64,000 bases of DNA from Primulina eburnea. Lineage: Eukaryota; Streptophyta; Magnoliopsida; Lamiales; Gesneriaceae. The stretch covers positions 43,470,051 to 43,534,050 of the forward strand of contig NC_133108.1 in assembly GCF_022965805.1 (NCBI RefSeq). Reading direction: 5' to 3'. Both the position numbers and the translations under genes were made by a program. Below are positions 1-45,924 of the stretch, piece after piece (the stretch's first letter is position 1; each line of letters opens with the position of its first letter). Below the pieces are notes generated by a model. It ran no database searches. It had not been told where the DNA came from and saw only the letters and a program-made list of their open reading frames with translations.

Positions 1-73
1 TTATCAAGTTTTTTAGCTTCACATATTGTTTAGTGTCCCTTTGCACGACTGGCGTGTTTATACAATTGTAAAA

Positions 74-354
74 TGACAAAAATTTGTGTGAGATGGTCTC
101 ACGGATCGTATTTGTGAGACGGATCTCTTATTTGGGTCACCCATGAAAAAGAAAAAAATATTATGACAAAAACTTGTGTGAGACGGTCTCAGAGGTCGTA
201 TTTGTGAGACGGATCTCTTATTTGGGTCACCCATACAAAAGTATTACTTTTTATGCTAAGAGTATTACTTTTTATTGCGAATATGGGTAGGGTTGACCCG
301 TCCGTGAGACGGTCTCACGGATTAAGATCCGTGAGACGGTCTCACATGAGACTT
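74..354 (+). mobile_element. MITE cluster, GTGAGACGGTCTCAC family
   Basis: Short non-coding repeat with palindromic ends. The 5' part (GTGTGAGA.GGTCTCA, then a GTGAGACGGATCTC segment) occurs twice, at about 74-150 and 163-235. It is followed by one internal region (TATGCTAAGAGTATTAC...) and a 3' end with GTGAGACGGTCTCAC written twice around GGATTAAGATCC. It looks like one element with a partial tandem copy of its left end. The same family recurs at 11414, 14457, 15063, 16602 and 17616. No coding capacity; the superfamily was not determined. Confidence 0.75.
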
Positions 355-635
355 ACTCTGATTTTTATTATTTTCAAATTGATTATTTTTCTTTAAATAT
401 AGATAAAGCTATGATTAAGTTTTTGTTTAAAAAAAATATTTTAGGAAATATAATTTAATTCATATATAGTGAATTTTTATATGAAACGTGATTATTTTAG
501 AGTAATTCTTTTCGTTCAATGTTTATGTTGGATTTCTTATTTTGTTACATTTTGTTTTTTTGAAAATAATAATAATATTACATAAAACAAATTAAATATC
601 CTGGAAAAGAAAATTCGTTACGATTTTGAAGACCA
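355..635. other. AT-rich intergenic DNA
   Basis: AT-rich sequence with no convincing ORF, RNA gene or repeat that I recognise. It ends at the 9-bp target duplication of the next element. Confidence 0.6.
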
Positions 636-644
636 AAGATTTAA
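636..644. repeat. Target-site duplication, left copy (AAGATTTAA)
   Basis: AAGATTTAA sits directly outside the left inverted repeat. An identical 9-mer lies directly outside the right inverted repeat at 8862-8870. A perfect 9-bp duplication at both ends is what Mutator-like transposition leaves. Confidence 0.8.
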
Positions 645-779
645 GGGGAAATTGCTCCTAAATCCCTAAACCCAAACTTAACTTGTTCCTAACTCCCTAG
701 CCATCAAAAACTCTCTTTTAACTCCCTAAACCTATAGAATTGACAAAACTACCCTTATTCTCTATTTTCTTTAATTGAT
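645..779 (+). repeat. Left terminal inverted repeat
   Basis: Starts GGGGAAATTG and contains repeated ACTCCCTA motifs, then TACCCTTATTC and AATTGAT at its inner end. It aligns along its whole length with the reverse complement of 8727-8861. Identity is roughly two thirds by eye, and about 9 of the 10 outermost bases match. Nothing viral is visible in it. Confidence 0.75.
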
Positions 780-797
780 CCTCCGCGCTTCACAAAA

Positions 798-809
798 TGG
801 TATCAGAGC
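798..809 (+). promoter_or_regulatory. Primer-binding site for initiator tRNA-Met
   Basis: TGGTATCAGAGC matches the 3' end complement of plant initiator methionine tRNA, the minus-strand primer used by all Caulimoviridae. It lies about 50 nt upstream of the first viral ORF, as expected. Only 18 bp separate it from the left inverted repeat, so the circular genome seems to have been opened at this minus-strand discontinuity. Confidence 0.9.
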
Positions 810-858
810 ATGGTTAATTTATTTCAAACACGAAAATTTTATTATTACTAGTAATTAA

Positions 859-1104
859 ATGTATGAGAAGGAGAATTTCGAAAAAATTATGAATCCGAAC
901 TTTAGTTCGAGGAGAATAATTTACAAGAACTATTCCAATATTTTGGAATATACACAAGTTTATCTAACTATTGTTAGATATCAGAAACAGGAGAACAAAG
1001 GAAATTTATCTCCTGATGAAAGACAGCAGTGTTTGCAAAACCTTGCATACACAAAAGGTAGACTCTTACAGGCCGAAAAGACCAGATCTTCAATGATCTG
1101 TTAA
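859..1104 (+). CDS. Viral ORF 1, 81 aa, unknown function
   Basis: First ORF after the primer-binding site, 81 codons, basic and rich in Asn and Tyr in its first half. No domain recognised. Its stop (TAAATATG) is followed two bases later by the next start, so the ORFs are arranged for coupled or reinitiating translation from one long RNA, as in other caulimovirids. Several genera (badna-, tungro-, solendoviruses) have a poorly conserved small protein at this position; whether this is equivalent cannot be told from sequence alone. Confidence 0.6.
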   Translation: MYEKENFEKIMNPNFSSRRIIYKNYSNILEYTQVYLTIVRYQKQENKGNLSPDERQQCLQNLAYTKGRLLQAEKTRSSMIC

Positions 1105-1106
1105 AT

Positions 1107-1304
1107 ATGCCAGGGACTACCATCCAGCTCGAAATTGAACTTATTTCCCTAGAAATAATTCAATTAGAACAAGAATTACAGCGAAGTACATGCTTCACTG
1201 AACTCAGAACGAAAGGTATGCGTTTACAAGGTTTAAAGAACCGTAAAAACATACTTCAAAATCTACTCAGAAGAAATTCTTCAGAGAACAATGGATCTGT
1301 ATAA
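1107..1304 (+). CDS. Viral ORF 2, 65 aa, helical small protein
   Basis: A 65-codon ORF starting two bases after the ORF 1 stop. Residues about 7-30 are rich in Leu, Ile and Glu with hydrophobic spacing typical of an amphipathic helix; the rest is basic. No family recognised. Near its end a further 24-codon reading frame opens (ATG at 1291, stop 1363-1365), which in turn overlaps the start of ORF 3 at 1352. This chain of minimal overlaps supports all these short frames being viral rather than chance. Confidence 0.5.
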   Translation: MPGTTIQLEIELISLEIIQLEQELQRSTCFTELRTKGMRLQGLKNRKNILQNLLRRNSSENNGSV

Positions 1305-1351
1305 ACAGAAGATCTACGAAGGGAAGCAACAGCACCCTCAGGTAAAAATTT

Positions 1352-1723
1352 ATGATTCAGAATAATAAATTTCTGGAGATAGTACCAGACTCCTCTAAGC
1401 TCTCTCTGGATCTTAGAGAAATACAGAAAACGGTACAAAATTATGGCAATATGCTATATTATGTACCTCAAAGGATTGAAAAGGTCCTAGAGAAACAAGA
1501 AGAAATTCTTGAGATCTTAAAGGATATTCAAACAAGAATACAGAAACTAGAACAACAACCAAGTTCTAGTAGAAGAACTTCAGGAGGCTGGTTACCACCA
1601 TCCTTTGGTACCGAACCTTTGTTACATCAACAAGGGAAGGCCAGAGTGGTGTCAAAACCTTTAACTGAAGAAGAAAAGATGATCAATCTAATCAAATCTG
1701 TCTCAGAAAAGAAATTGATCTGA
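1352..1723 (+). CDS. Virion-associated-protein-like coiled-coil protein, 123 aa
   Basis: A 123-aa protein. Residues about 45-72 form a strong heptad-type coiled coil (Leu, Ile and Val at a/d positions between Lys, Glu and Gln). A short Pro/Ser/Gly linker and a basic C-terminal tail follow. Size, coiled coil and position just before the capsid gene match the virion-associated or DNA-binding small proteins of Caulimoviridae (CaMV ORF III, badnavirus ORF 2). The stop overlaps the capsid start in the pentamer TGATG, a standard reinitiation arrangement. The assignment rests on architecture, not on residue-level similarity. Confidence 0.6.
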   Translation: MIQNNKFLEIVPDSSKLSLDLREIQKTVQNYGNMLYYVPQRIEKVLEKQEEILEILKDIQTRIQKLEQQPSSSRRTSGGWLPPSFGTEPLLHQQGKARVVSKPLTEEEKMINLIKSVSEKKLI

Positions 1724-3165
1724 TGACAACTTTAGAAAGGATTGGTTTGGAGGATCTACAAGAGCTTGCGGAATCTTTCGCAAATCTCAAAGTAGTAGAT
1801 CTAAAGATGAATACAGCAGTAGGTGAAACACCACCTGCAATAACCTGGTCATCTTCCCAGGAACCACCAAGGGAAAGTATGGGATCTCATAATATAAATA
1901 TGAGAGAATCTCAGACTGATTTCCATACTGGTGGAGGATCACACCCAGCGGGAACAAGGGCAAGGAGAACTCAAATCCCTTTGCACCAAACACCCTATGG
2001 GAAAACTGTTTTAGATCCTATACATCCTTACGGGGTTATGCTTAACCTTGATGTATTGGACTTCAAAAACAGAGAAGATCTCATAGACGATTGGACATCT
2101 GCTATGAGAATTGCAGCAGGAACACTTGATCTCAACAAAGAAGGATTCATTAAACTTTTGGAAATGAGTCTTATGGGATCAGTAAAAATTGCTTGGGACA
2201 TGACTTCAGCAGACATGAAAGAGTCAGTCCTAGTTGGAGAATCTCTTAGTGAGATCGCTGGAAAGATGGCTACCCTATTCAAAGCACACTTTATAGGGGT
2301 AGACTATTTCAACAGTCAAAATACAGAGAAGAAGAAAAAATATACTCAAGCTCTGCATAGTCTTGAATTACATGATATATGTTTGGTAGATGAATACATT
2401 ATGTTATTCACCAAATATAGATGGAATTCAGGAGTCGAAGAAGATATAGCTATGCAGCTTTTCTTCGCAAAAATGCCAAGCCCGTGGAGAGAAATGCTCA
2501 TAGGGGAATACGTACCTGGTAATCCAGATACATTGGCAAGAAGAGCCTCTTTCCTTAAAGGGAAATTAGCAGAATGGTGTCACATGGCAGCATTACAAAA
2601 GAATTACAAACGACTAAGGAGTATCAACAAAAGAACTCCTTTGTGTTGTAAGGAAAATGATCTTCCAACAATTATTGGAAGTAAACCACAGAAACATAAA
2701 AGGAAAAGTTTTAGGACTCATCCTTATGCACGAAGTGGAAGAAGTTCTTGGAAACCAAGAACCGTATGGTCTAGACAGAAAGCCAGATCTTATAAATCTG
2801 GACAAAGAAGCGGACCATCGAGAAGTAGGATATCATCCCAGGCATCAAGTTCATCTCGAAGCACAGGAAGAACACCTACAAAGAAAACTTTCAGAAGAGC
2901 TCATACTAGAGCCAATGAAAGTTTCAAGGATTGTAATTGCTGGACATGTGGAGCAAGAGGTCATATCTCGACCAATTGTCCAGAAAATGAGAAAAGAGGT
3001 ATTAAACGTTTTGATCCTACTCCGGATATTGAAGAAGCAGTTTATTACCAAGATCTCATTCAAGTATACCAATTTGAGGACATTGCCTCAGATGAGAGTA
3101 TATATGAAGAAGAGGAAGTCTTAAGTCAGGAAGAATCTGATGGAACAGAATCGGAATCTGACTGA
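1723..3165 (+). CDS. Pararetrovirus capsid (coat) protein with zinc knuckle, 480 aa
   Basis: Coat protein of the endogenous caulimovirid. The N-terminal ~100 residues are Ser/Pro-rich and low in complexity. A capsid core follows (about 100-285, with conserved Trp and Phe clusters), then a very basic Arg/Ser/Lys-rich stretch (about 310-400). A CCHC zinc knuckle, CX2CX4HX4C (CWTCGARGHISTNC), lies near residues 406-419, and the C-terminal tail is acidic (Glu/Asp/Ser). Basic region, knuckle and acidic tail are the signature order of caulimovirid capsids. The frame is complete. It overlaps the preceding ORF by 1 nt and the movement protein by 26 nt. Confidence 0.85.
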   Translation: MTTLERIGLEDLQELAESFANLKVVDLKMNTAVGETPPAITWSSSQEPPRESMGSHNINMRESQTDFHTGGGSHPAGTRARRTQIPLHQTPYGKTVLDPIHPYGVMLNLDVLDFKNREDLIDDWTSAMRIAAGTLDLNKEGFIKLLEMSLMGSVKIAWDMTSADMKESVLVGESLSEIAGKMATLFKAHFIGVDYFNSQNTEKKKKYTQALHSLELHDICLVDEYIMLFTKYRWNSGVEEDIAMQLFFAKMPSPWREMLIGEYVPGNPDTLARRASFLKGKLAEWCHMAALQKNYKRLRSINKRTPLCCKENDLPTIIGSKPQKHKRKSFRTHPYARSGRSSWKPRTVWSRQKARSYKSGQRSGPSRSRISSQASSSSRSTGRTPTKKTFRRAHTRANESFKDCNCWTCGARGHISTNCPENEKRGIKRFDPTPDIEEAVYYQDLIQVYQFEDIASDESIYEEEEVLSQEESDGTESESD

Positions 3166-4375
3166 AGACGAGGTGTTTCGACACGAAACACATGAAGATT
3201 TGTCTGGGTTTTTTAGCCAGACAACAATATCTCATAACATGGTTCAAAGAATCATGAGAGAAAATCCGAGTCTACAGAGATATCAAGGTTTCTCTGCAGG
3301 ACAGGTAGAAAAGTTCTTAGGAAGTCTTGGCCTAAGAAACAGAAAGCATCATCTAATCTATAAAGTTTCTAGAAGGGAAATGGCAATCCCAATGGAACTT
3401 ACAGGAAATAGAATGGAGATGCAGTTAATTCCTTCCGAAGAAATAAAGGAGGAATTACAAAAACTCAAGATAGAAGTAGCAAGGACTATGTCCTGGATTC
3501 ATATAGGAGCAATCCAGATTATGATAAAGGCTACTTTCAAAGAAGGGATAGATTCACCAATTGATATCGCCATATGCGATAAAAGAATGGGGAATCTACA
3601 AGATTCAGTACTAGGAACAATCTCAGGAAACCTCTGTGCAGGAAAAATTGTAGGAGTAATCTATCCAAGGATAGCCTACAACCTGGCAGATCGAGATTTC
3701 AGCCGAGCCTTGACATTACATCAGAACTTCAAGGAAAAAAGGTTGATGAAGGAAGGCAATAGACCATATTCTATTACCTATCAGATTTCATATGCTCTAT
3801 CTAATACACATCATTCTGAATTGTTTATTAGAAACGAGTTTATTGAAATACCTGAGATATTTGGAAAAGTTGCGCAGGCAATTTATCCAGAAAGAATTGA
3901 GTTTCCTTTAATACAGGAAACAAATATCCAGATCCAAGACAAACCGATTCTACAGAGAAATCAAAGTCTTAGACTGGAACCAAGAAGACTATCTTTTCAA
4001 GGAGATAGAATTACAAGTTACAGATGGGATAAAAAGCCTGTCATAGAAACCCAACAGGAGTTGAAAAGTTTTTCTACAATAGGAAAGCTCAGATGCCCAG
4101 AAGGTTGGAAGGAAGTAGAAATAGTATTTGATATTACAAAACAAAGGAATCAATTTCCTTGTAATTTAATATACTATTTGGAACAACCGATGATAGGAAC
4201 TTACCAAGGACTGATTAATATCGGAGAATTGGAGGTTCATATTCAAGGAATTCCAGGAAAAGAATCAGAACGATTGATTCTTGGGCTAGAGTTTCTCGAG
4301 GAACATAAACCTTGGAAACGTCTAGAGTATGGAATGGAGTTTATGGCAGAAGATAAAATGTGGAAAATCCAATGA
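3140..4375 (+). CDS. Movement protein, 30K superfamily, 411 aa
   Basis: Cell-to-cell movement protein. The central region (about residues 110-205) has the 30K-superfamily hallmark: a hydrophobic strand with IGAIQIMIKATF, then the conserved GIDSPIDIAICD segment (the invariant Asp of the family), then further beta strands containing GNLCAGK. Flanks are basic and poorly conserved. In Solendovirus and Cavemovirus this domain is fused behind the capsid protein; here it is a separate ORF overlapping the capsid frame by 26 nt and the polymerase frame by 16 nt. No stop codons interrupt it. The family call is firm; the genus is not. Confidence 0.82.
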   Translation: MEQNRNLTEDEVFRHETHEDLSGFFSQTTISHNMVQRIMRENPSLQRYQGFSAGQVEKFLGSLGLRNRKHHLIYKVSRREMAIPMELTGNRMEMQLIPSEEIKEELQKLKIEVARTMSWIHIGAIQIMIKATFKEGIDSPIDIAICDKRMGNLQDSVLGTISGNLCAGKIVGVIYPRIAYNLADRDFSRALTLHQNFKEKRLMKEGNRPYSITYQISYALSNTHHSELFIRNEFIEIPEIFGKVAQAIYPERIEFPLIQETNIQIQDKPILQRNQSLRLEPRRLSFQGDRITSYRWDKKPVIETQQELKSFSTIGKLRCPEGWKEVEIVFDITKQRNQFPCNLIYYLEQPMIGTYQGLINIGELEVHIQGIPGKESERLILGLEFLEEHKPWKRLEYGMEFMAEDKMWKIQ

Positions 4376-6396
4376 CCACAAGTCCATTCTCCATATACAT
4401 TCCAGTAGGAATGTTGTATGAACAATATAAGGCAGAATACTTTGCTGCATATATTGATTCAGGTGCTGGAATATGTACAGCAAAACGAGGAGTTTTTCCA
4501 AATAATTTGGAAGAAGAGTTACCCAAGATTGCTGGAAGAGATTTTTCCAGAAGAATCTTAATCTTATGTAAAGGGATTAAGATGACTGAAATCATGATTG
4601 GCGGTGCTGGACAAACACCTTGGTACAAGGTAAAGACACCACCAATTTATTTTCATGATACAGGAGCTGACATATTGTTAGGAAATAATTTCCTACAAAT
4701 GTTCAAGTCCTATACACAAGAAAATGAGACTAGAAGATTAGTGTTCACAACACCATGTGCCCACAAAATCATAGTCCAGAGACTTAGGGAGGCATTTTAC
4801 AGAAAATTGCCAATCCAGTTTCGCAGCAAGCGTGGTGATTCAGGAAAACTTCTGAACCCAAAAATGAAGGATTCAAGACGGTTTGGAGAAACAATGCTCC
4901 AGTTAAGAGCAGATAAGGAACTCCAACCAGAAGATATAGAATGCCTTAAGATAACTCTACACACAAATGAAGTAGAGTTTGAATCTAAGGTATCACTGGA
5001 AGATGTCAAGAAGAGGATCAAAGAAAATTATAACGAAGATCCCTTGGCATGGTGGGACAGAAATCAACTCAGGGCTTGCCTTAAGATCAAGGAAGGCAAA
5101 GAGTATGAATTTGTCCGTTGTAAACCCATCCCAATGAACATCATTGATCAGAGGGATATGCAGATTATAATCAAGGAACATTTGGACCTTGGATTAATCA
5201 AAGCAGGTATGTCACCATATAGCAGTCTAGGTTTTCTGGTAAGAAACCATGGTGAAATTAAACGAGGAAAACCCAGATTGGTTATTAATTATCAAGAAAT
5301 TAATAAGATTCTGGAGTTTGATGGGTATTTTATACCTAGTAGAGAACACTTGATTAGTTGCATTCGCAATGCCAAGATATTCTCTAAATTTGATTGCAAG
5401 TCTGGATTCTATCAGATTCGGATGCAGGAAGAAAGCAAGAAATTCACAGCTTTCTCCACACCTCAAGGACATTATATTTGGGAAGTATTACCAATGGGAT
5501 TGGCTAACTCACCCCAAATATTTCAAAGAAAGATGGATAATCTTTTCAAAGATTATTTCAAGTTTATGTTTGTTTACATCGACGATGTTCTAATAGCATC
5601 CAAAGATATGAATGAACATGTTAAACATTTGGAGATTTTCTCTAATGTTTGCAAGAAAGAAGGACTGGTTTTATCTGAAAAGAAAGCAGTCATTGCTACA
5701 AGAAAGATTGAATTCCTCGGAATTGAAATCGATGAATCAGGAATAATTCTGCAAGAACACATAGTAGAAAAGGTGCAGAATTTTCCAGAGAATCTCAAAG
5801 ACAAGAAACAACTTCAAAGTTTTTTAGGGGTTGTTAATTTTGCTGGGATGTTTATTAAAAACCTAGCAAAACACAGGAAGGTGTTCAGTCCATTATTGAA
5901 AAAGGATGCTAGATTTATATGGACAGACGAACACACAAAGGGACTTATCCATTTAAAGAAGGTTTGCAAAAATCTTCCAAAGATGGCTATTCCTCAAGAC
6001 GAGGATGATCTGGTATTATATACCGATGCCAGTGATCATTGGTGGGCTGCAGTATTAACAAAGCTCACACCAGATGGAGAACAACCATGCAGATATTGTA
6101 GTGGGTTATTCTCAGACGCAGAAGCCATAAGATGGCATATCAACGAAAAGGAATTTTATGCAGTAAAAAGGGCTTTTGAAAAATGGCCGTTATTTTTACT
6201 TGCAAAGAAATTCACTTTGAAAGTTGATAACACTCAAGTTAAAGCCTTTTTGAGGAATAGAATTGAGTCTAAACCGGAGAAGGCTAGATTATTACGATGG
6301 CAAGCTTTATGTCAAAATTATATTTTTGATATTATGATAATAAAATCTCATGAAAATATTCTTGCAGATTTTTTAACAAGAGATGGACAGCATTGA
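4360..6396 (+). CDS. Aspartic protease, reverse transcriptase and RNase H polyprotein, 678 aa
   Basis: Replication polyprotein, complete and uninterrupted. A retroviral-type aspartic protease motif IDSGAG lies near residue 32, with a later HDTGADILLGN flap-type segment near 100. The reverse transcriptase has FDCKSGFYQIRM near residue 343 and the catalytic YIDDVLIAS near 406. RNase H carries LYTDASDHWW near 551 and ends in NILADFLTRD, typical of caulimovirid C termini. There is no integrase domain, which separates it from Ty3/gypsy retrotransposons, its nearest relatives. All catalytic acidic residues I can recognise are present. It overlaps the next ORF by 14 nt. Confidence 0.92.
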   Translation: MENPMTTSPFSIYIPVGMLYEQYKAEYFAAYIDSGAGICTAKRGVFPNNLEEELPKIAGRDFSRRILILCKGIKMTEIMIGGAGQTPWYKVKTPPIYFHDTGADILLGNNFLQMFKSYTQENETRRLVFTTPCAHKIIVQRLREAFYRKLPIQFRSKRGDSGKLLNPKMKDSRRFGETMLQLRADKELQPEDIECLKITLHTNEVEFESKVSLEDVKKRIKENYNEDPLAWWDRNQLRACLKIKEGKEYEFVRCKPIPMNIIDQRDMQIIIKEHLDLGLIKAGMSPYSSLGFLVRNHGEIKRGKPRLVINYQEINKILEFDGYFIPSREHLISCIRNAKIFSKFDCKSGFYQIRMQEESKKFTAFSTPQGHYIWEVLPMGLANSPQIFQRKMDNLFKDYFKFMFVYIDDVLIASKDMNEHVKHLEIFSNVCKKEGLVLSEKKAVIATRKIEFLGIEIDESGIILQEHIVEKVQNFPENLKDKKQLQSFLGVVNFAGMFIKNLAKHRKVFSPLLKKDARFIWTDEHTKGLIHLKKVCKNLPKMAIPQDEDDLVLYTDASDHWWAAVLTKLTPDGEQPCRYCSGLFSDAEAIRWHINEKEFYAVKRAFEKWPLFLLAKKFTLKVDNTQVKAFLRNRIESKPEKARLLRWQALCQNYIFDIMIIKSHENILADFLTRDGQH

Positions 6397-7729
6397 CATT
6401 GATGCTATTATCAAGATGCAGAGGCATTTGAGGGAACACCTTGAAATGCTTCAAACCGAGTTCAACAAGTTAGCTGTTAACGCAGAAGTTGCGGGAAGGC
6501 TACAACAAGCTGATAAGAGAATTGTCTCTGATCGAATTACAGGATGTTTACAGGCATATACTCAGTTATGGTCTGTAACGCAAAGGCCTATCCTCCAGGG
6601 CATTGAGAGACCACTGGTTTCTCAAATGGAGAGTTTTCGAGTACATGACTCTATACCTGTAGCGGGGGATTCAAATACCCCTTGCACAAGTGTTAAGTCG
6701 GGATCATCACGAGATGAGTCGGCTGAAACAAAAATTGAGACTCCTGATCCTTATCTTGAGTCCTCAAGTCAACCCTTCACCTCGGGGATTGAAGAGGGAG
6801 AGATCAACCTTAGGCCTCGTATTGACAAAGGCAAAGCTAAGGTTGGTACTAATGAAGGTGTAATTTCTCCATTCCAGGTTTATCAGCAGAATTGGGAGAA
6901 ATTAAAAACACGTATTGGCATTAACCCAGCTACAAATAGGGTTGATGTTTCAGGAAAATATCCAAGGGTATGGATGAAACCTAATTCATATCCCAAGGAG
7001 GTTAAAGCTTGGTATGAATTTGGGGCTCTTGCCTCAGTTTATACTACATCACCCAGCTTTCCGGAAATCTCAGGTTTACCAAAGTGGATCCAGGAAGCTG
7101 TTCACGAGACTTGGGCAAACAATGATTATTTGTCCAGAGGAGATGTTTTGGAGCTATACTTCTTTAGTGCAGCACCAGAACCAGCAGGGAAAGGTTCTCA
7201 CGAAGCCTTTCATTTCATCAAGCTAAGGAGGCCAGATTCAAATATCCAGAAATTTATCAAGGACCCTCCGACAGAAGAAACACCCCTAGTGTCTTCAATG
7301 ACTGAAGATGACATTTCTACCAGAAGAGCTTGGGGTATTTGGGTCTGTCTCACTGAGATGGACAAAGTCAAGTTTCCGTTCAAATTCTACAATCATTCAG
7401 GGAACGGATCATTCCTGTTAAATACCATGACAGGAAAAACAACAAGTTTTGCAGAAGATCTATTTGAAAAGAAAAGAAATCTTTTGTGGAATAGCAAGCT
7501 GCCGGCAAGTAAAGAAACTCGTCGGAAATTCTGTAATATGGCACATGTAGGAAGATGGTCTGAAAACATCTGTCCAGAATGCCAAAACCAGAAGGAACCG
7601 GAATTTGGTAAAGGATTCAAGCCGAGATCTGATCGGAAACACTTTACCGATACCAGTACAAGTGGGGATGGACCACATTCACGATTTCCTCGAGGAAGCC
7701 GAAAGCCAAAGATTCCTCGACAAAATTAA
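6383..7729 (+). CDS. Transactivator / inclusion-body-type protein, 448 aa
   Basis: Occupies the place of the translational transactivator (CaMV ORF VI) after the polymerase. It has an N-terminal helical segment (1-75), a variable Ser/Pro/Glu linker (about 95-165), a conserved core (about 170-345) with WIQEAVHETW and LYFFSAAP segments, and a Cys/His group near residues 390-405 (CNMAH, ICPEC) that could bind zinc. The tail is basic. Family members let ribosomes reinitiate on polycistronic viral RNA and form inclusion bodies, which fits the tightly overlapping ORFs upstream. The assignment rests mainly on position and the core; zinc binding is inferred. Confidence 0.7.
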   Translation: MDSIDIDAIIKMQRHLREHLEMLQTEFNKLAVNAEVAGRLQQADKRIVSDRITGCLQAYTQLWSVTQRPILQGIERPLVSQMESFRVHDSIPVAGDSNTPCTSVKSGSSRDESAETKIETPDPYLESSSQPFTSGIEEGEINLRPRIDKGKAKVGTNEGVISPFQVYQQNWEKLKTRIGINPATNRVDVSGKYPRVWMKPNSYPKEVKAWYEFGALASVYTTSPSFPEISGLPKWIQEAVHETWANNDYLSRGDVLELYFFSAAPEPAGKGSHEAFHFIKLRRPDSNIQKFIKDPPTEETPLVSSMTEDDISTRRAWGIWVCLTEMDKVKFPFKFYNHSGNGSFLLNTMTGKTTSFAEDLFEKKRNLLWNSKLPASKETRRKFCNMAHVGRWSENICPECQNQKEPEFGKGFKPRSDRKHFTDTSTSGDGPHSRFPRGSRKPKIPRQN

Positions 7730-7920
7730 AAGGGACATGTGACCCTCCACTACAAAAGCAGGACCACTACCATGTGAGTGGAAGAAACAAGACAACCACT
7801 AATTAGTGGTAAAGGACAAATAGACCATCAATAACAAATGGTGGATGACTCAGCAAGCATTGGACACCAATCTAAAAGGAATCCAATGAATAAAAGTAAA
7901 TTAACTGGTCCCGAAAATTC

Positions 7921-7976
7921 ATCCATAAATAAGGACAGAAAGGAAACCAGTTAACACACCAGAACCAAAACTTAAA
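7921..7976 (+). promoter_or_regulatory. Possible second viral TATA element
   Basis: CCATAAATAAGGACAGAAAGG starts near 7922. It closely resembles the stretch around the main TATA box (CTATAAATAAGGCAGAAAGAAGG, 8270) and lies about 50 bp before a small ORF. It may be a duplicated or secondary promoter. Function is inferred from resemblance only. Confidence 0.4.
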
Positions 7977-8177
7977 ATGTATCGTGTATATTTGAAAGTT
8001 TTGAAAAGAAGAATAACATACAAGAGGAAAGAGGCAGAAGCTCTTAAATGGTTAGTAAATCATTTCAAAGAGTATAAAAAAGATGAAATTACTGCCGATA
8101 TCCTGGAAACTCATCGTCAATGGTATCTAAAAGAGATAAAGGAGGATGAGAAGTTGATGTCAAGATTAATAATCTAG
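7977..8177 (+). CDS. Small basic viral ORF, 66 aa, unknown
   Basis: A 66-codon ORF between the transactivator gene and the main promoter, placed between two similar TATA-type sequences. The product is rich in Lys, Arg and Glu and predicted mostly helical. No family recognised. In caulimoviruses a small dispensable ORF VII lies after the main promoter; this one precedes it, so homology is unlikely. It may be a real short protein made from the upstream TATA element, or a chance frame. Confidence 0.35.
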   Translation: MYRVYLKVLKRRITYKRKEAEALKWLVNHFKEYKKDEITADILETHRQWYLKEIKEDEKLMSRLII

Positions 8178-8270
8178 ACAGGGACCCCTCAACCACCAAA
8201 TGGTCCCCAATGCAAGCTGTAAAGGCTTATGAAGATTTGAAATCCGAAGTTCAAATCCGAAGGAGCCTTC

Positions 8271-8278
8271 TATAAATA
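8271..8278 (+). promoter_or_regulatory. 35S-like TATA box of the pararetrovirus
   Basis: TATAAATA in the context CCTTCTATAAATAAGG, followed by a purine-rich leader start. Transcription would begin near 8300. Poly(A) signals lie at 8433 and 8455, so the RNA would be terminally redundant by about 150-180 nt on a circular genome, as in all Caulimoviridae. Confidence 0.75.
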
Positions 8279-8432
8279 AGGCAGAAAGAAGGAAGTGAAG
8301 ATCATCAAATATTTTCTCCATTTCTTTCATACAAGGTTGTAATATTTTCTTTCAAGTTTTATGTGTGTTAAGAGTTCAGCTACGATAAGTAGCTAAAACA
8401 AGTTTCTCCTCCTCTACAGGAGGTTACTATGT

Positions 8433-8460
8433 AATAAATAAATGTTTGTGTTTTAATAAA
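8433..8460 (+). terminator. Poly(A) signals of the pararetrovirus
   Basis: AATAAA at 8433-8438 and again at 8455-8460, about 160 bp downstream of the TATA box. The sequence beyond, to about 8726, has no ORF and corresponds to the remaining RNA leader before the primer-binding site on a circular genome. Confidence 0.6.
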
Positions 8461-8726
8461 AGAGATCTTTGCTCTTAGCCCCTATCATGTATTATTTTCA
8501 AAAATTGATCTTTTGCTGTACGCTCTAAGGTAGGAAACGAATTAGAGCTGTGCTAAGTATTGCTGAAGGAATCTGCTTAGTAACCATCGGTTGCGATCGT
8601 GTGGTTGGACTGTGAGGAGCAGTTCGTAAAAAACGGTGGATATAACCCGGTGGTACTCTAGTCAAAAAGGTAAAAGATTCAATTTATTTTACGGAAGCAT
8701 GATGGGCCTTTTACTACAAAAAAGAA

Positions 8727-8861
8727 ATCAATTATTTAAAATAAATATATAAGGGCAAACTTGGAAATTTGAGGGATATGGGGAGTTGAAACAAAGTTTT
8801 AATGGGGTAGGGAGTAAAGAGGAGGTTGAGAATGGAAATAGGGAGTTTTTGACAATTTTCC
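8727..8861 (-). repeat. Right terminal inverted repeat
   Basis: Reverse complement begins GGGAAAATTG, contains ACTCCCTA twice, GCCCTTATATAT and AATTGAT. It matches the left repeat in order and spacing over 135 bp with few gaps. The two copies differ at about one third of positions. Confidence 0.75.
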
Positions 8862-8870
8862 CAAGATTTA
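8862..8870. repeat. Target-site duplication, right copy (AAGATTTAA)
   Basis: Identical to 636-644, directly abutting the right inverted repeat. Confidence 0.8.
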
Positions 8871-10385
8871 ACTTAAAATATACTGGTATCGATCTTTATA
8901 ATATAATATAAATAAATTGATTTTTTTTATGGACGATAATTGTCGGTGGATATTCGAATTAATCAATTACTAATAAACCAATAAAATTAAAGCTATTTCA
9001 ACTAGCTAAGACATGCATGATCATGCACGTTGCTCCTTAAAGCATAAGCTAAATTTCCACTTATTATATAATTGAATCGACTTGGATTTAACTTATTTTA
9101 AAATGAAAATTTTATTACATTGAGTGCAAACATATTTAAATGTAAAAATTTAAAATGGAAATTATTTCAATTATATGATTATCTGTAATATATGAGACAA
9201 CATTCTATATTGAAAATGAAAATTTGGAATGGGAGATTAAACAACAAAAACAAAGTGTTTATGGTTATCGACAATGAAACTTTTAATAAATTATTATTAG
9301 TTATTTTGAAGCTCAAGATTTTAATAATCGATTTATCGTTGTATGATAATTCCAGTAAAAATTGATTTTGTTTAAAAAAGATCTAAGATCCGAGTCTTTC
9401 GAATATTTATTTCAAAACGATACAAAGTTAATTGATTTTAAATGAAGGTATTTTCTGGGAACAAACATAGTGTATCATTGATCTTTTGGGGGTCTTTTGA
9501 ATTAAAAATAGTAGTAGAATTATCTTTTAGATTTTCCAATGATAAAATATTTTAGGGAGTCATGCAGTAATTTCTCCTTGAATGTTAAATCGTGGCCTTT
9601 TCAAGTTAAAGCCAAAAAATAAAAATAAAAAATAAAAAATTAACGGCATATACTTGACTTTATTATATATCATCATCATTATTATTATTAAAAATAAATA
9701 AGTTCACTATTTTGTAAAGAGAATCCCTATTCTTTGATGTGAAAATTGGCATAGGTCCATATAAAAAAGGTTGACTAATAATTTTGTCGTGTCCAAAATT
9801 TGTTATAACATAAGATTAGAATAATGCGCTAATGTTTGCTCTTTATGACGAAATATATATTATTTAGTATGATTTTAACGTAGATTCTCAATTTTATTTT
9901 TTTCATATATTAGTCGAAATAATAATTCCATCTGTTTATATTTGTCCAATCCACAAAATTTACGGCTCGCATTGCGACAAACAAATTCTCCCAACTTAGT
10001 TCATTTAGGTGAGAATGGTTTTTTTAATCCCAAAAAACCATCTTTCTTTTTTTTAGCCCCCTATTTCAATTTTTTCCATAAATAATCAACTTTATTTTTT
10101 AAAAAAGACCTAATGAAAACAAGAAAATTTTTTGTTTTAATTTAAATTAATTTTTTTCAAAAAGTAATTATAAAAATAATCGATTGGATATGAACGCAAT
10201 GTTTGTATACAAAAGTATACAATAAATGTGAAGAATTTCCTGAGTAAACTACCTACATTGTTCACATAAGTGATATTTGAATCCAAAAATTGTTTATACT
10301 ATCCAAACTAGCTACCACGTTTTTCATGATGCATACCAAAGAGTACATATAAGTAAAAATTTAAAAAATAATAGCCTTGCCTTAG

Positions 10386-10386
<1 letters not shown>

Positions 10387-10462
<76 letters not shown>
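10387..10462. repeat. Compound (CA)n(TA)n microsatellite
   Basis: About 37 bp of CA repeats run directly into about 38 bp of TA repeats. Likely polymorphic in length; no coding role. Confidence 0.95.
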
Positions 10463-10467
<5 letters not shown>

Positions 10468-11413
10468 AGGACTGACCCACAAAGTAAATTTTGTAATCTG
10501 ACCGATGAAATGTTATTTTTATCTATAAAATATTATTTTTCTTTACAGAAATATCATTTTTTGTTAGTTACATTTTGAAAAAATATTGTGTAGTATATGC
10601 TAATTTGAATGAAAATATTATTTTTCATGTCAAATTATACATGGTAATATATTGATTTGAGTAAAAAATATTTTTTTATGATATAAACTAATTTCGACTC
10701 ATCTCATAAATATAGATCCGTACACATGATACATACTATATATATATATATACACACACACGCGCACAAAACATTAATTATTGCATTTGTAAATGGTAAG
10801 TATTCATGCATCCATATCATATTACCAAAAGAACGGCGGAAAATCATTCAACTTTTGTTCAATTATGTAAAACTTCATAAAGGAAACATCTTTCTAAGTT
10901 TGCAAAATTGTAATAACATTAATAAGATAAAAGTACGTTGACCAGATATATTATCATGATCACGAACGACAACATTATTGTTGTTTTTTCTTCTTATTAT
11001 TATTAAAATATTATTATTTTATTATTAATCAATTCCAAAAGATATAAAGTTCTCGAGAAGGGAATCTCTTTTGATTCAAAAGTAAGCATAATCGTATTTT
11101 TAAATTCTTCACTCATATTTCTAATTCACTTACACACATACATGTGTGTGTGTGGTAAACACTCAGTCAAAGGAATGACATTCATAAGCACTTGATAAAC
11201 GATTCATGAGATCCGTCGACTTTGTAAATATCTTCGCTTTCTAGGTTGTCATGAGATATGACACCTTACTAATTAAATTATTACTACAAATAATCAATTA
11301 TTATCATTACTAGGATCCATTCATTTTTTTAATGGAGGGTATCATTTTTATTTTTATTTTTTTTTCTCCTTTTTTTTTGGAACAATAGCCTAGCCACTTA
11401 ATTAAATGAGTAT

Positions 11414-11588
11414 GTCTCATGTGAGACCGTCTCACGGATCCTAATCTGTGAGACGAGTCAACCCTACCCATATTCACAATATAAAATAATACTCTTAGCA
11501 TAAAAAATAATACTTTTCCATGGATAACCCAAAAAAGAGATCCGTCTCACAAATACGACCCGTGAGACCGTCTCACACAAGTTTTTGC
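11414..11588 (-). mobile_element. MITE, GTGAGACGGTCTCAC family
   Basis: Complete copy in reverse orientation, about 175 bp. It reads GTGAGACCGTCTCAC, GTCAACCCTACCCATATTCAC, ACTCTTAGCATAAAAA, GAGATCCGTCTCAC and ends GTGAGACCGTCTCACAC. Both ends carry the near-palindrome, so a single strand could fold back. Confidence 0.8.
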
Positions 11589-12280
11589 CTAATTAAATAA
11601 TCAATATTTTTTTTATTTTTTAAAAAAAAACCATTTACAAAATTGCGAGTTATCTTTTTTTTAGCTATCAAATCATTGTGTCTTGCAAAATCATTGAAAA
11701 ATTTGAGATCATGGCAGGAAAAAAAAAAGAACATTTATTGATAAATTTAATGAATTAAATATTGATTATTACAAGCATTGAGCGAGTGGTAGGGTATATA
11801 TATATCATGAATTGAACAAGCTCCTAGTGGTGCGAATCATTTGGATCAATTCTTGTCATGTTACTGCAGGCATTATTGAAGAACTTTGATTATCTTGCAA
11901 AATTTTACATTTCACTATAAATTATATATCACCGCTAATAAAAAAAGATTATCTTTTTTCCCGTTTCAAACTTAGGATCTTTGCAAGTACTCGTGGGCAT
12001 ATTATCTTTGTTACACAAGTAATGGGGTCTTGGAGCCTTACCCTTGCTGTTAGACTAAGGGATTCTTGACGAGTAAGGAGGGTTCTTGCAAGTCATCAAT
12101 CTTCTTCACTAAAAATTATGATCTGTTGTTAGCATTGGAAATTCGTTTGAGGTCGGTAAGCTAGAACGGGAATGGGGGCAAACGAGCCACTTGATATTAA
12201 TACAGATGATGGATCCAAATTCAAAGTCTGAATCAGTGAATCGCCCAATAAAATAATTGGATACACATATACATATATGA

Positions 12281-15062: not shown

Positions 15063-15247
15063 TGACAAAAACTTATGTTAGACGGTCTCATGGATCGTAT
15101 TTTGTGAGACAGATCTCTTATTTGGGTCATCCATAAAAAAATATTACTTTTTATGCTAAGAGTATTATTTTTTATTGTGAATATCGACAGGTTTAACTCG
15201 TCTCACATATAAAATTTCGTGAGACCATCTCACAAGAGACCTACTCC
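15063..15247 (+). mobile_element. MITE, GTGAGACGGTCTCAC family
   Basis: Near-complete copy: GACAAAAACTTATG, AGACGGTCTCATGG, CTTATTTGGGTCATCCAT, TATGCTAAGAGTATTA and a CACAAGAGAC end, with scattered substitutions. Confidence 0.78.
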
Positions 15248-16601: not shown

Positions 16602-16780
16602 TAAAAACTTGTGTGAGACGATCTCACGAGTCATATTTGTGAGACATATATCTTATTTTGGTTATCCATTGAAAAATATTATTTTTCATGCTAAAAGTAT
16701 TACTTTTTATTATGAATATGAGTAAGATTGACCCGTCTCACATATTAAGCTCCGTGAGATGGTCTCATATGAGACCCACT
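16602..16780 (+). mobile_element. MITE, GTGAGACGGTCTCAC family
   Basis: Complete copy with GTGTGAGACGATCTCACG, an internal TATTACTTTTTATTATGAATATG segment, TTGACCCGTCTCAC and CATATGAGACCC end motifs. Confidence 0.8.
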
Positions 16781-23071: not shown

Positions 23072-26000
23072 TCTATATCTATATATCTATATTATCTATA
23101 AAAACGTGGATACTTGAAATGTTATTCCAATTGTGAAGACGTTTTATATTTTTACTTATTTCAATTATGAAGTAACATGTATTGTAATTTAACACTTAAT
23201 CTATTAATTAATAATTAATACTAATTAACCACGTTTTATGATTATGATTTTGTGTTTTTGAATTTTTCTCATCTTTTTTTCATTATAATATTTAATTATA
23301 TCATATTTCATTTTTAAAACAAAATTATTTCATTTTATATACATATAAATATGTGGATGTGTTTACTTAATCAAGTGACATACGTGGTAATTTCATACTT
23401 AGTCTATTAATTAATAATTAAATATTAATGAACCACATTTTATGGTTATAATTTTATGTTTTTAACTTTTTTCCCTTATATATTTCTCATTATAATTTTT
23501 AGTTATGTCATATTTCATTCTATTTCATTTAAAAAAAAAATCATTTTATATACATACAAATGTGTGGATGATAGAAAAATTTTCTAATTGTAAACGAGGT
23601 TGAGAGAAATAAAGTTGAGTTATATCATAATGAAATGTTATTTTCTATTATAAAATTAATATATGACACAATCCTTATAATAAATGTAAATTATAATGAT
23701 CATTGATTAACATCTGTCAAAGTATTAGGGCTTTTACATATGATATATTAACATATTTATTTATTTTAAAATCGAACTAACTAATTCAATAAATACTAAA
23801 ATTACATTTTTTTTTATCAAATTTATGTATTTGGTTATGTTTTTATTTTATTTTTTATGTGAAAATCATACCGATAATTTAAAATTTATATTTAATAATT
23901 ATTTTAGGAGTTTATTAAATTTTATTTGATTTTTATCAATCTTTTATAAATGTGTATTTCATTACATATATTGATTTATTTTTTATTTTAAAATTATATT
24001 TAACAAGAAATTAATAAACATCGATGTAATTTATAAAAGATAGATTCTGATATAAAATTGATTACGTATGACATAAAATTCTAAAGACAAAAGGTTAAAA
24101 AATTATTTAGGTGTTTAAATATTAATTTAATAATATTATGAGTTATATTTTACTATTAATATTATTATTTCATTAGTTTTGATATTGTTTTGATGAGTTA
24201 GTCACGATATTTTAATTAATGTAAATTATGATTATGCGTTGATAAAGTCTATAATTTTATTGATTTTTAGTTCATTATGCCTTATACGTGGTGTTTGAAT
24301 ATATATTTCTAAAATTTTATTGTTCATTTGGTTCTATATATTGTGTTAATTATAATTTATTACATAACATAAAATTAACAAATTGAATTTTAATTTGACA
24401 AAAAAGTCGAAAGTAAATTATATTCGTCTAATATAACAAGAGATTAAACTCAAATTAATAACAATAATATTCAAGTTTTTCAATTGTGAACGGACTTAAT
24501 TATCCTTCACATATTTACTTATTTCAATTTTAACATATTTGCTAATTTCACATTTAGTCTATTAATTAATAATTAATATCAATTAACCACATTTTATGGT
24601 TATGATTTTGTGCTTTTGACTTTTGCCCTTCTCTTTTTTCATTATAATATTTAATTATGTCATATTTCATTCTATTTCATTTTTTAAAAAAAATGATTTT
24701 CATTCTATATACATATATGTTTACTTATTTCAATTTCAAATAACATATGTTGCTTTTGGCCCTTATCTAATTTTTGTTATAATATTTAATTATGTTATAT
24801 TTCATTTTTTTAAAAAATTATTTCATTCTATATACATATAAATGTGTGGATGATAGAAAAATTTTCCAATTGTAAACAAACGTGAAAGAAATAAAGTTGA
24901 ATTATATTCATAATGAAATGACCCGTAATAAAGTATATATATTTTAAATTTATACATTCAATAAACAACATTTGACAGTATTTGAAACATCTGCTAAGAA
25001 TGTTTAATATTTAGGTAACAAGGGTCTAAAGGTAAACTCGACCATGGTTTTCAAAAACACTGAAACCAAAATCAGAACTAACATTTTTCTTGACTTCAGT
25101 TCCAAAATCAACTCTCGTATATATAAATTTAAGGCATAACTGTTGAACAATTAGTTTCACCGTCTCATATATTGTATAATTATTTTATTTATATTTAAAA
25201 ATTAATACTAATAGCAATTTTTAAAAATTTATATATCAGACAAGTTTATAAATTCGATACACAAATTTTTTTGTAAGCTCTCTTTTGATATATAATTTTT
25301 AATTTATATATATTTTTAATTATTTATGAAATTTTAAGAAAATAAAAAAATCTACATGCAAGCATACAATTTGACTTATATACAACTTTAAAACTTAAAA
25401 ACAAATGATATCAAATGTTAAATATTACAACTTATTTCATATTAAAAAATAAATCATAAAAAAACAAATAGTTTCAAATTCTGTAGGAGATCATAAAAAA
25501 CAAATAATTTCAAATTCTGTAGGAGGTTAAATATTCTTAAATTAAATATTATGAGTTATAGTTTATTTATTTTGAAATCAAACTAACTAATTCAACAAAT
25601 ACAAAAAATAACATTTTTCATGCAAGTTTATTTCTTTGATTATATTTAAATTTTTATGAGAAAATCATAACGGTAGTTTAAATTTATATTTAATAATTAT
25701 TGTATTTCATTACTTATGTTGATTTATTTATTATTTTAAAATTGTATTTAACAAAAAATTAATAATCATTGATGTAGTTTATAAATATCAATTCTGATAT
25801 AAAATTAATTATATATGATATAAAATTCTAAAACAAAAGGTAAAAAATTATGTAGGTGTTTAAATATTATTTAAATGAAATATTATTAGTTATATTTTAC
25901 TGTCAATATTATTATTTCATTAGTTTTGATATTGTTTTGATGAGTTAGCCATTATATTTTAAATTGATAATTATTTATCGTTGGTGTGCTTAATTTATGT

Positions 26001-26322
26001 AAATCATGATTTATGCATTGATAAATTTCATAATTTGTATTTTTAGTTTATTATGCATTATACATGGTGTTTAGATATATATTTTTTAACAATTCGTTTC
26101 ATTCATTTGGTTCTGTATATTGTGCTAATTAAAATTTATTATATAACATACAAATTCGAAATTAAATTATATAAGTTCTTAATTAATTTATTTGTCTAAT
26201 ATAACAACAGATTAAACTCAAATAAATAACAAAATATTTCAAATTATTTTTTTTAGAAACTCAAAATTTTAATTTTCGTAATATAATTGGTATTTACGTG
26301 CATCACACGTGCTTCATGCTAA
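23072..26322 (+). mobile_element. Helitron-like AT-rich element (one or more nested copies)
   Basis: Begins TCTATATCTATATATC after an A and ends with a short GC hairpin (ACGTGCATCACACGTGC), then TTCATGCTAA before a T. A TC start, a subterminal hairpin, a CTRR end and an A/T insertion context are the hallmarks of plant Helitrons. The interior is non-coding and internally repetitive: CTATTAATTAATAATTAA occurs near 23200, 23405 and 24558, and TTTGATATTGTTTTGATGAG near 24180 and 25925. At least two related copies are therefore nested or in tandem. No Rep/helicase is encoded, so it is non-autonomous. Confidence 0.5.
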
Positions 26323-28085
26323 TTTATATAAAGTATATATAAAGGCCATTGTTTTCCAATTGTGCAATGACAAAATTAACCTTCTATACATCTCTTCAAA
26401 AATAGAATGTAACTCCTATATTAATGTTATCAAATAACTCATCTTTATACTACATTTAAATGTTTTATCCTTTTAATTTTCTTTCCACATTTTTTTCCCA
26501 ATGATTTTATGGTAATTTTGTAATTTATATAAAGTGTGGATAAAGTTCATTGTTTTTCAATTGTGCAATGACAAAATTAACCTTCTACACACACTTCATG
26601 AATAGAATGTGACTTATATATTAATTTTATCAAATAATTCATTTTTATACTACATTTACATGTTTTATCCTTTTAATTTTCTCTCTATATTATTTTTTTC
26701 CAATGATTTTATTGTAATTTGTATTATATAAAGTGTGAATAAATGTCATTGTTTTCCAATTGTGCAATAACAAAATGACTTTCTATATTGTGTAACTCCT
26801 ATATTAATTTGATCAAATAACTCATCTTTATATTACATTTAAATGTTTTATCTCTTTAATTTTCTCTATATATATATTTTTTCAAATGATTTTATTGTAA
26901 TTTTATAATTATATTTTTAGTGAAATTTCTAATTAAGTAATAAATTATAGTATAAAAAAAATATATGAAAAATTTATAACTATATGTGCAATAGTAGAAT
27001 AAATAACATATTTTATGGGGTTTTTAACAAAGAATTGAAAGTAAAGAGTTTATTTTTTTTTAAATGAATGTACGATTTCAAAAAAATATGAAAAAAAATC
27101 ATCTATAATGAATATATATGTTATAATTATTTTATTAAATTGTATAACTAAAAAATTATGTATATTATTTGTCAAATCAATCATCAATCAAAATTTGAAT
27201 ATATAATTAATGAAAGAGATTTAATGAGCAATAAAAAGACTCTAAGTTATTTTCTTCTGTAAAAACAATATATGATATAATTCTTATAATAAATATAATT
27301 ATAATGATCATTGGTTAGGATTTGTCAAGTATAAGAATTTTTACATATTATATTTAATATCTTTATTTAATTATTTTGAAATCAAACTAATTATTCAATA
27401 GACACAAAAATAACATTTTTTTATGAAGTTTATTTATTTTGTTATAATTCATATTTAATGGTGAAAATCATATTAATAGTTTAAAATCTATATTTAATAA
27501 TTATTAAACGAGTTTATTTGATATTTACCATATAATCTTATTTAAATGTGCATTTCTTTACACATGTTGATTTACTTATTATTTTAAAATATTTAACAAG
27601 AAATTAATAGTCATCGATATTAGTCTACGAAAGATCGATATATAGAATTGTAAAAAAAAAAAAAATATTGTTTTTTAGAATGTTAAATTAAATATTATGA
27701 GTTATATTTTACTATCAATATTACTATTTCATTTGTTTTAATATTAAGTTAGTCATAATGATTTTAAATTGATAATTATTTTTATCTTTAGTATGCTTCT
27801 CTTTTATAGATTATGGTTTATATATTGTTAAAATCCATAATTTGGTTGATTTTTGGATTATTATGTTTTATACGTAGTGTTTGAATATATAAATTTTGTT
27901 TCAGTTCATTTTGTTCTATATATTATGTTCATAACAATTTATTATATAACATAAAGAAATAATTTTGAAAGTAAGTTATATAAGCTCTTATAAATCGTCT
28001 AATATTATAATAAATTAAGCTCAGATAAATAAAAAAAAAAGAATCAAATTGTTTTTTAGAAAATCAAATTTTTTTAATGTCATTA
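26323..28085 (+). repeat. AT-rich tandem repeats and degenerate Helitron-like copy
   Basis: Three consecutive copies of a ~200-bp unit (about 26323, 26524, 26722), each with ATAAAG, CATTGTTTT.CAATTGTGCAAT, a conserved AATAACTCAT segment and TTTTATC. A degenerate third copy of the 23-26 kb repeat follows (TTATATTTTACTATCAATATTACTATTTC at 27700 is also seen at 24140 and 25885). No genes. Confidence 0.55.
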
Positions 28086-28379
28086 AATTTTTAATAACTG
28101 ATCCACATCCCAAACACATGCTATTGATTTCCATGACAACCAAATAACTGATTATGCATATAGGACAAACCTCCCTGTCTTAATATTCCAGAAGTTTATA
28201 ACACAGTAACCTGTTGGCTTAGAATGGGTAGTCCTTAATAGTCATAGTGAATTGTTATTCTGGTACCACAATAAAATCCGAAGGCTATGAATATAGCAAA
28301 TCTACGAACTTTCCTCACAGAAAATTATAATATAAAAGGGTTCTAAAGCATATGAAATCACCACCTATGACCTAAACGA

Positions 28380-44956: not shown

Positions 44957-44961
44957 CTGAT
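44957..44961. repeat. Target-site duplication CTGAT (left)
   Basis: CTGAT before the 5' LTR; identical CTGAT at 51327-51331 after the 3' LTR. Confidence 0.9.
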
Positions 44962-45884: not shown

Positions 45885-45924
45885 ATCTTAAAACAGATTA
45901 CTTATTACGAGTTTTGTTTCAGAT

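What the first reader, a model, noticed from the sequence alone, without database searches (positions are those of the whole stretch)
636..8870. A complete pararetrovirus carried between transposon-like inverted repeats with a 9-bp target duplication
Seen: AAGATTTAA at both outer edges, and ~135-bp inverted repeats (GGGGAAATTG / CAATTTTCCC ends) immediately inside. The whole space between is a full caulimovirid genome with open ORFs. Known: endogenous caulimovirids normally lack terminal repeats of this kind and integrate by host end joining; 9-bp duplications with long inverted repeats are typical of Mutator-like elements. Inference: either the virus genome landed inside a pre-existing MULE-type MITE, or the viral genome has become cargo of a DNA transposon and may move as one unit. 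The second would be a new way for a pararetrovirus to spread through a genome.
Basis: partly seen in the sequence, partly recalled or inferred. Interest (0 to 1): 0.88.

Follow-up and report, generated by a model that had tools for sequence, protein, structure and literature searches.

The report
Plant virus integrating as DNA transposon
In this plant genome a complete pararetrovirus lies between transposon-type end repeats at dozens of sites, each with its own 9-base target duplication, and its genes look selected as those of a working virus, which suggests a reverse-transcribing virus that enters chromosomes the way a DNA transposon does.

Summary
The element is window 645-8862 (8,218 bp): terminal inverted repeats (TIRs, ~135 bp, 68.6% alike) round a five-ORF caulimovirid, flanked by AAGATTTAA at 636-644 and 8863-8871. 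The host genome (812 Mb; probably Primulina eburnea) holds about 100 such units: the outer TIR core occurs 120 times, 101 of them at a fixed distance before the viral primer-binding site. Of 54 copies with both ends read, 53 have a 9-bp duplication (two with one mismatch). The 40 best polymerase matches all have a TIR on at least one side. No transposase domain was found in the unit.

It is probably not mere cargo. In 20 further copies, changes shared by two or more are mostly silent (movement protein 5 amino-acid-changing to 24 silent, polymerase 7:32), private ones near neutral (42:20, 71:33); no stop or indel in those genes is shared. So insertions descend from an intact, selected lineage, most simply a virus carrying the TIRs, inserted by a transposase acting in trans (Mutator-like is likeliest). 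Not shown: episome, transposase, TIR-TIR joint, empty site.

The parts
636..644 (.). left 9-bp target-site duplication AAGATTTAA
   Evidence: other copies mostly have other 9-mers, one other copy has the same
645..780 (+). left terminal inverted repeat, outer end GGGGAAATTG
798..809 (+). primer-binding site TGGTATCAGAGC (Met-tRNA type, label recalled)
   Evidence: fixed distance from the TIR core at 101 genome sites
1352..1723 (+). ORF1, 123 aa, perhaps a virion-associated protein (inference from size and place)
1723..3165 (+). ORF2, coat protein (PF22909); zinc-knuckle match below cut-off
3140..4375 (+). ORF3, movement protein (PF01107), shared changes purified
4360..6396 (+). ORF4, protease-reverse transcriptase-RNase H, shared changes purified
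6383..7729 (+). ORF5, viroplasmin/transactivator-like by position and relatives (inference); shared changes in its 3' part purified
8270..8277 (+). TATA-like box of a 35S-type promoter (prediction)
8433..8460 (+). AATAAA polyadenylation-like signals
8300..8726 (+). first part of the predicted pregenomic leader; few shared changes
   Evidence: 21 shared changes per kb against 100 per kb in 7740-8250
8727..8862 (-). right terminal inverted repeat, outer end CAATTTTCCC in this copy
8863..8871 (.). right 9-bp target-site duplication AAGATTTAA

Best explanation
A caulimovirid lineage carries long transposon-type inverted repeats in its leader region, between its promoter and its primer-binding site, and enters chromosomes as a class II transposon. 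SHOWN: about 100 loci, exact ends, 9-bp duplications, no transposase domain found in the unit, TIR variants inherited with the viral genes, shared changes purified while private ones look near neutral in movement protein and polymerase. INFERRED: between insertions the lineage replicates as a virus (transcription, reverse transcription, cell-to-cell movement); in its circular form the two TIRs meet head to head, as a long leader hairpin just before the primer-binding site; a transposase supplied in trans, most likely Mutator-like, recognises these ends and inserts the DNA with a 9-bp stagger; inserted copies then mostly decay. A single linear insert has its promoter at the right end and its genes to the left of it, so genome-length RNA would need circularisation, for instance after excision.
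For: Copies: 105 left termini with at most 3 mismatches in 29 bases (control 0); 120 exact cores AAATTGCTCNTAAATC (control 1), 101 of them at fixed distance before the primer-binding site (control 0). TSDs: 53 of 54 two-ended copies: the window, 36 of 37 others from the left-TIR list (35 of 36, one more), 9 of 9, 7 of 7. Pairing left and right flanks of different copies gives at most one mismatch in 33 of 1260. RT-led sample: of the 40 scored RT hits (851 candidates), 22 lie at loci of the TIR lists (matched by eye from coordinates); the ends of the other 18 were fetched and each shows a TIR on at least one side. Selection, 20 copies and the window: shared N:S MP 5:24, RT 7:32 (0.10 of neutral); private 42:20, 71:33 (0.84 and 0.75); ORF5 7364-7726 in 38 copies shared 15:34, private 20:12; pairwise dN/dS between the two groups 0.12. 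Ten stop positions and up to 7 indels in those genes, none shared. TIR and RT distances correlate (Mantel r 0.44 left, 0.62 right). Mosaics: copies at least 99% alike in RT whose right leader and TIR are only 86-90% alike, and one with a TIR pair not detectably related yet an exact 9-bp TSD.
Against: The exact joint CAATTTCCCC-(0-30)-GGGGAAATTGCTC is absent from the genome, and a shorter form from viral contigs; other end variants were not tried. No episome seen, no autonomous partner found. In a 13-copy ORF5 subset private changes too were below neutral (22:23, 0.39 of expectation, p 0.0025). dN/dS within the youngest group is 0.31. The TIRs vary about as much as other non-coding sequence in shared changes (91-96 per kb), so they show no special sequence conservation. 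The shared class rests on 29 and 39 changes. The 20 copies (of 39) were picked for near-standard length, and all copies were found by likeness to the window, so old or broken ones are under-sampled. Coat protein was not tested.
Confidence: 0.78

Rival explanations
1. Pack-MULE-like cargo: a Mutator-type non-autonomous transposon trapped a viral genome once and copies it purely as DNA; the viral genes are passengers.
For: TIRs, 9-bp TSDs, no transposase domain in the unit, no TIR-TIR joint found. Private changes in MP and RT look near neutral.
Against: Shared changes are strongly purified in MP, RT and ORF5, and no stop or indel in MP or RT is shared among 20 copies; passengers copied from decaying copies should share some. 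Right-end modules differ against a near-constant RT.
Confidence: 0.13
2. Both modes work (compatible with the best explanation): new insertions come mainly from replicating virus, and some inserted copies are later excised or moved again as DNA, which also releases circles.
For: The same ends would serve both; a linear insert has promoter and genes in an order that needs circularisation for full-length RNA (anatomy).
Against: No inherited defect in MP or RT among the 20 copies examined. No excision site was looked for.
Confidence: 0.4
3. Chance nested insertion of a virus in a short pre-existing MITE, or an assembly join.
For: A two-armed palindromic frame of MITE size round the virus; a review proposes that (TA)n palindromes break and take up caulimovirid DNA as filler (PMC10377300, section 3.1 read).
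Against: About 100 left ends with the same spacing to the viral primer-binding site, different TSDs at most loci, and all 10 new right ends fetched continue into virus.
Confidence: 0.01
4. The ends are a viral leader hairpin that only resembles transposon ends, and integration uses some other staggered-cut machinery with a 9-bp gap.
For: The arms pair well as RNA (-95.9 kcal/mol against -46.2 +- 5.1 for 200 mononucleotide shuffles) and lie just before the primer-binding site, where caulimovirid leaders fold (recalled). The TIR core occurs mostly with the virus.
Against: Exact termini with a constant 9-bp TSD are the usual mark of a DDE transposase; plant LTR integrases leave 4-6 bp (recalled). 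A TIR pair not detectably related has the same kind of TSD in one copy, so it is the transposon-like function that is kept.
Confidence: 0.15

Closest known systems
Endogenous caulimovirids (EPRVs, Caulimoviridae)
   Same: Coat, movement protein, protease-RT-RNase H, Met-tRNA-type primer-binding site. Nearest polymerases: 61% over 96% of the query in Sesamum radiatum (P0001), and an unnamed protein 80% over 69% (P0002).
   Different: The review holds that EPRVs enter by break repair or through retrotransposons, often beside (TA)n and as tandem or rearranged copies (PMC10377300 section 3.1). Here: exact ends, TIRs, 9-bp TSDs, no tandem TIR joint found.
Mutator-like elements and Pack-MULEs
   Same: Long TIRs, TSDs in the 7-12 bp range, foreign DNA inside (PMC10741241, passage).
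   Different: [quoted passage not shown] here a whole viral genome whose genes are purified in the spreading lineage.
Teratorn of medaka
   Same: A composite unit with a piggyBac-like DNA transposon (PMC10175614, start of abstract in listing); its herpesvirus part is recalled.
   Different: Large dsDNA virus in an animal, with an encoded transposase (recalled); here a small reverse-transcribing plant virus with ends only.
Petunia vein clearing virus (Petuvirus)
   Same: Pararetrovirus named as an exception that has an integrase domain (PMC10741241, passage).
   Different: Retroviral-type motif, no TIRs (recalled); here no integrase domain was found and the ends are of DNA-transposon type.

Membership tests
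Caulimoviridae | RT-RNase H with retroviral-type aspartic protease, no integrase | tested here: met
   RVT_1, RNase H and Peptidase_A3 in ORF4; no integrase domain among the five ORFs
Caulimoviridae | 30K movement protein and caulimovirid coat protein | tested here: met
   PF01107 E 2.5e-31; PF22909 29.1 bits over cut-off 27
Caulimoviridae | primer-binding site and terminally redundant pregenomic RNA | tested here: inconclusive
   primer-binding site at 798, promoter-like and polyA-like motifs; RNA not testable
Caulimoviridae | encapsidated circular dsDNA | not testable with these tools
   no reads or virions; the exact TIR-TIR joint tried is absent from the assembly
Mutator-like elements (MULE) | TSD of about 9 bp | tested here: met
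   53 of 54 two-ended copies
Mutator-like elements (MULE) | long terminal inverted repeats | tested here: met
   ~135 bp, 68.6%
Mutator-like elements (MULE) | MULE transposase in the element | tested here: not met
   no transposase domain in the five ORFs; at most a non-autonomous member
Mutator-like elements (MULE) | autonomous partner with the same ends | not tested
   no search for transposase genes was run; nine unlinked TIR termini could not be fetched
Pack-MULE | cargo copied as DNA without selection on it | tested here: not met
   shared changes purified, no shared stop or indel in MP and RT of 20 copies
LTR retrotransposon | LTRs and 4-6 bp TSD | tested here: not met
   no direct repeat of the two ends reported in 1-10500, 9-bp TSD

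The most novel reading that the evidence does not exclude
A reverse-transcribing virus that has gained class II transposon ends as a working part of its genome: it replicates through RNA and moves from cell to cell as a pararetrovirus, and a host transposase acting on the head-to-head TIRs of its circular DNA puts it into chromosomes, including the germ line. The TIR pair doubles as the leader hairpin, and whole TIR modules are exchanged by recombination (one copy has a pair not detectably related).
Probability: 0.5. Interest if true: 0.97.

Novelty: categorically new. Interest (0 to 1): 0.93.

Why it matters
Pararetroviruses are held to have no integration step of their own; how their DNA enters plant chromosomes is called speculative in a 2023 review (PMC10377300, section 3.1). 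Here one lineage shows precise, repeated, enzyme-like integration with class II hallmarks. If right, it joins two modes of mobility, copying through RNA and insertion by a DNA transposase, in one agent, and shows how a virus can enter a germ line again and again (the 20 dated copies all fall within about a million years at an assumed rate). It also makes the integration question testable with a TIR-only reporter and a host transposase.

Tried and rejected
Viral-contig scans with the polymerase and with a 9-sequence alignment found no relative, and a TIR-TIR pattern found none there. Papers: searches listed nothing that, by title and start of abstract, describes a pararetrovirus between TIRs (at most the best 20 of each hit list were shown; one search was on the host). 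I read section 12 of PMC10377300 and found passages of it, and found passages of PMC526188, PMC10741241 and PMC9794742; the rest I saw as listings. Most subscription papers and all bioRxiv preprints are outside that library. Segmental duplication was rejected: apart from a short dispersed repeat and two other local matches, the 600-bp flanks of different copies do not align. A 'virus in a MITE family' was rejected because no virus-free copy was seen.

Not done or not achieved: an empty-site search; a search for transposase genes; the origin of the second TIR type (not completed); selection on the coat protein. Rows dropped: of the 39 non-window loci, one ran off a contig end (C981) and one right end was not reached (C11:37700669). 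One two-ended copy (C13:31281247) lacks a full TSD; by eye a 4-base loss at its right end would explain it. Of the 10 and the 8 further RT loci, one each had its left end outside the fetched piece. One counted TSD (C3:16824396) is a run of A and is weak. In one search the script misplaced the right end of L129; that TSD was read by eye; the C17 and C2:4845708 TSDs were read by eye; the TSD of L130/L131 was first seen by eye. Boundaries were allowed to shift by a few bases; without shifts 29 of 35 have at most one mismatch, and 16 of 18. The control uses the shifted boundaries without a new search. One MP/RT indel lies in both genes' lists and may be counted twice among the 7.
Full report
WHAT IS THERE. 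AAGATTTAA flanks 645-8862 on both sides. The inner edges are inverted repeats of about 135 bp, 68.6% alike, far above shuffles. Inside are five plus-strand ORFs: a small protein, coat, movement protein, protease-RT-RNase H, and a 448-aa protein, several of whose Sesamum relatives are annotated as one protein with RNase H domains. A primer-binding site lies at 798, about 18 bases inside the left TIR; CTATAA at 8270 and AATAAA at 8433-8455 lie near the right end. No transposase or integrase domain was found in the ORFs.

HOST. A GUN1-like gene in the window is 90% identical to that of Henckelia pumila, so the plant is a gesneriad. Contig C5 of the held assembly has exactly the length (41,820,699) given for a contig of Primulina eburnea (protein P0327; contig length), which makes that species probable; lineage. 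This rests on one number.

MOBILITY. The left TIR matched 40 scored places (of 160 candidates) at 96-100% on many chromosomes. The eight loci returned, the window among them, run from the TIR straight into the virus through the same junction at 99-100% identity (one has an internal deletion, one ends with its contig), and their flanks are alike only in a short dispersed repeat. With right ends fetched, 35 of 36 two-ended copies show a 9-bp duplication with at most one mismatch (two have one), against 33 of 1260 when flanks of different copies are paired; a 37th was completed later and fits. A second sample was led by RT rather than TIR (40 scored of 851 candidates, all shown as 99 or 100% over 701 bases). 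Twenty-two of the 40 lie at loci already on the TIR lists (matched by eye); the ends of the other 18 were fetched. Each of the 18 has a TIR on at least one side, and all 16 with both ends read have 9-bp duplications. In sum 53 of 54 two-ended copies, the window included. Target sites are AT-rich with weak symmetry, about TTAWWTWAA (36 sites).

NUMBER, AND NO MITE FAMILY SEEN. The 29-base left terminus with up to 3 mismatches occurs 105 times (control 0). The core AAATTGCTCNTAAATC occurs 120 times (control 1), and 101 of these have the viral primer-binding site at the fixed distance (control 0). Of the 100 termini listed, at least 86 are linked by the exact pattern, 100 of whose 101 places were compared. 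All 10 new right ends continue into the virus. So in this genome these ends are nearly a private mark of the virus.

HOW IT SPREADS. Changes found in one copy only look near neutral (MP 42 amino-acid-changing to 20 silent, RT 71:33; 0.84 and 0.75 of expectation, p 0.57 and 0.18). Changes found in two or more are strongly purified (MP 5:24, RT 7:32; 0.10 of expectation; Fisher shared against private 1e-5 and 6e-8). The 3' part of ORF5 over 38 copies agrees (shared 15:34, private 20:12), though in a 13-copy subset private changes too were below neutral (22:23). Pairwise dN/dS is 0.12 between the two main groups, 0.14 within the older and 0.31 within the younger. Ten stop positions and up to seven indels were seen in MP and RT, none shared; half of the 20 copies have a stop or frameshift there. 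A passenger copied as DNA from decaying copies should inherit such defects. The simplest reading is that the source of insertions is a replicating virus and the inserts are mostly dead ends. Selection on the movement protein is notable, since that protein serves cell-to-cell spread, not transposition.

THE ENDS TRAVEL WITH THE VIRUS. TIR distances follow RT distances among 21 copies (Mantel r 0.44 left, p 0.006; 0.62 right, p 0.0005), and the common TIR type shares one junction across subfamilies, so these TIRs probably predate the split of the subfamilies and the purified changes. Yet ends and polymerase also come in mosaics: copies with RT at least 99% identical to the window have a right leader and TIR only 86-90% alike, ending CAAGTTGCCC. 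One copy (C8:10917869) has a different TIR pair in the same place, with its own exact duplication TAGTTTTAT: its arms align at 30.9 against 4.3 +- 3.4 shuffled (maximum 15.8), while all four comparisons with the window TIRs stay below the shuffle maximum, one only just (12.9 against 13.2). Such mosaics fit template switching, which I did not prove.

MECHANISM. Shown: exact ends, constant 9-bp duplication, no transposase domain in the unit. Long TIRs with duplications of 7-12 bp are given for plant Mutator elements (PMC10741241, passage); that other plant superfamilies fit less well is recalled. Inferred: a host Mutator-like transposase acts in trans. In a circular genome the arms would meet outer end to outer end within the predicted leader, just before the primer-binding site, and they pair strongly as RNA (-95.9 kcal/mol against -46.2 +- 5.1), so they could serve as the leader hairpin of the family (recalled). 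The leader stretch 8300-8726 has few shared changes (21 per kb against 100 per kb in 7740-8250), but the TIRs themselves do not stand out (91-96 per kb). Against: the exact TIR-TIR joint tried is absent from the genome and from viral contigs; episome and enzyme unseen.

AGE. Private substitutions range from 0 to 6.75 per kb (median 2.5) in 21 copies; at an assumed 7e-9 per site and year (recalled plant rate) the median is about 350,000 years, the range 0 to 965,000, and one copy has none in the stretch. These are rough.

VERDICT. The first part is close to certain; the viral replication step is likely; the enzyme and the circular joint are hypotheses.

Noticed in passing
L122 (C3:1876232-1876932), near its primer-binding site: A ~195-bp insert between two copies of AGAAATGGTATCAGAGC, the primer-binding site; the insert holds GCTCTGATAC, the site's reverse complement. 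It may be a reverse-transcription artefact or a switch to another template with the same primer site.
   Followed up: partly
window 73-358, 11408-11593, 15066-15246, 16603-16775: A ~90-200 bp dispersed repeat (GTGAGACGGTCTCAC motif) that also occurs within 600 bp of many of the insertions compared; perhaps a shared target preference.
   Followed up: no
window 44959-51326: A copia LTR retrotransposon, LTRs ~929 bp and 97.3% alike, with gag, integrase and RT pieces.
   Followed up: no
window 28080-43143: A block of long, nested repeats, mostly 80-98% alike, origin not determined.
   Followed up: no
window 24001-28000: Very AT-rich stretch (18-19% GC) with a ~183-bp tandem repeat at 26320-26903 and a ~204-bp one just outside at 23184-23570.
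   Followed up: no
L140/L141 (C7:8122258): A copy at 99% in RT whose left and right end stretches are only 88% and 84% alike to the window, with ends GGGTAAATTG / AAATTTTCCC and a 9-bp duplication; another end variant.
   Followed up: partly
Sesamum proteins: Many Sesamum proteins belong to the same virus group; whether their genomic copies too have TIRs could not be seen from proteins.
   Followed up: no
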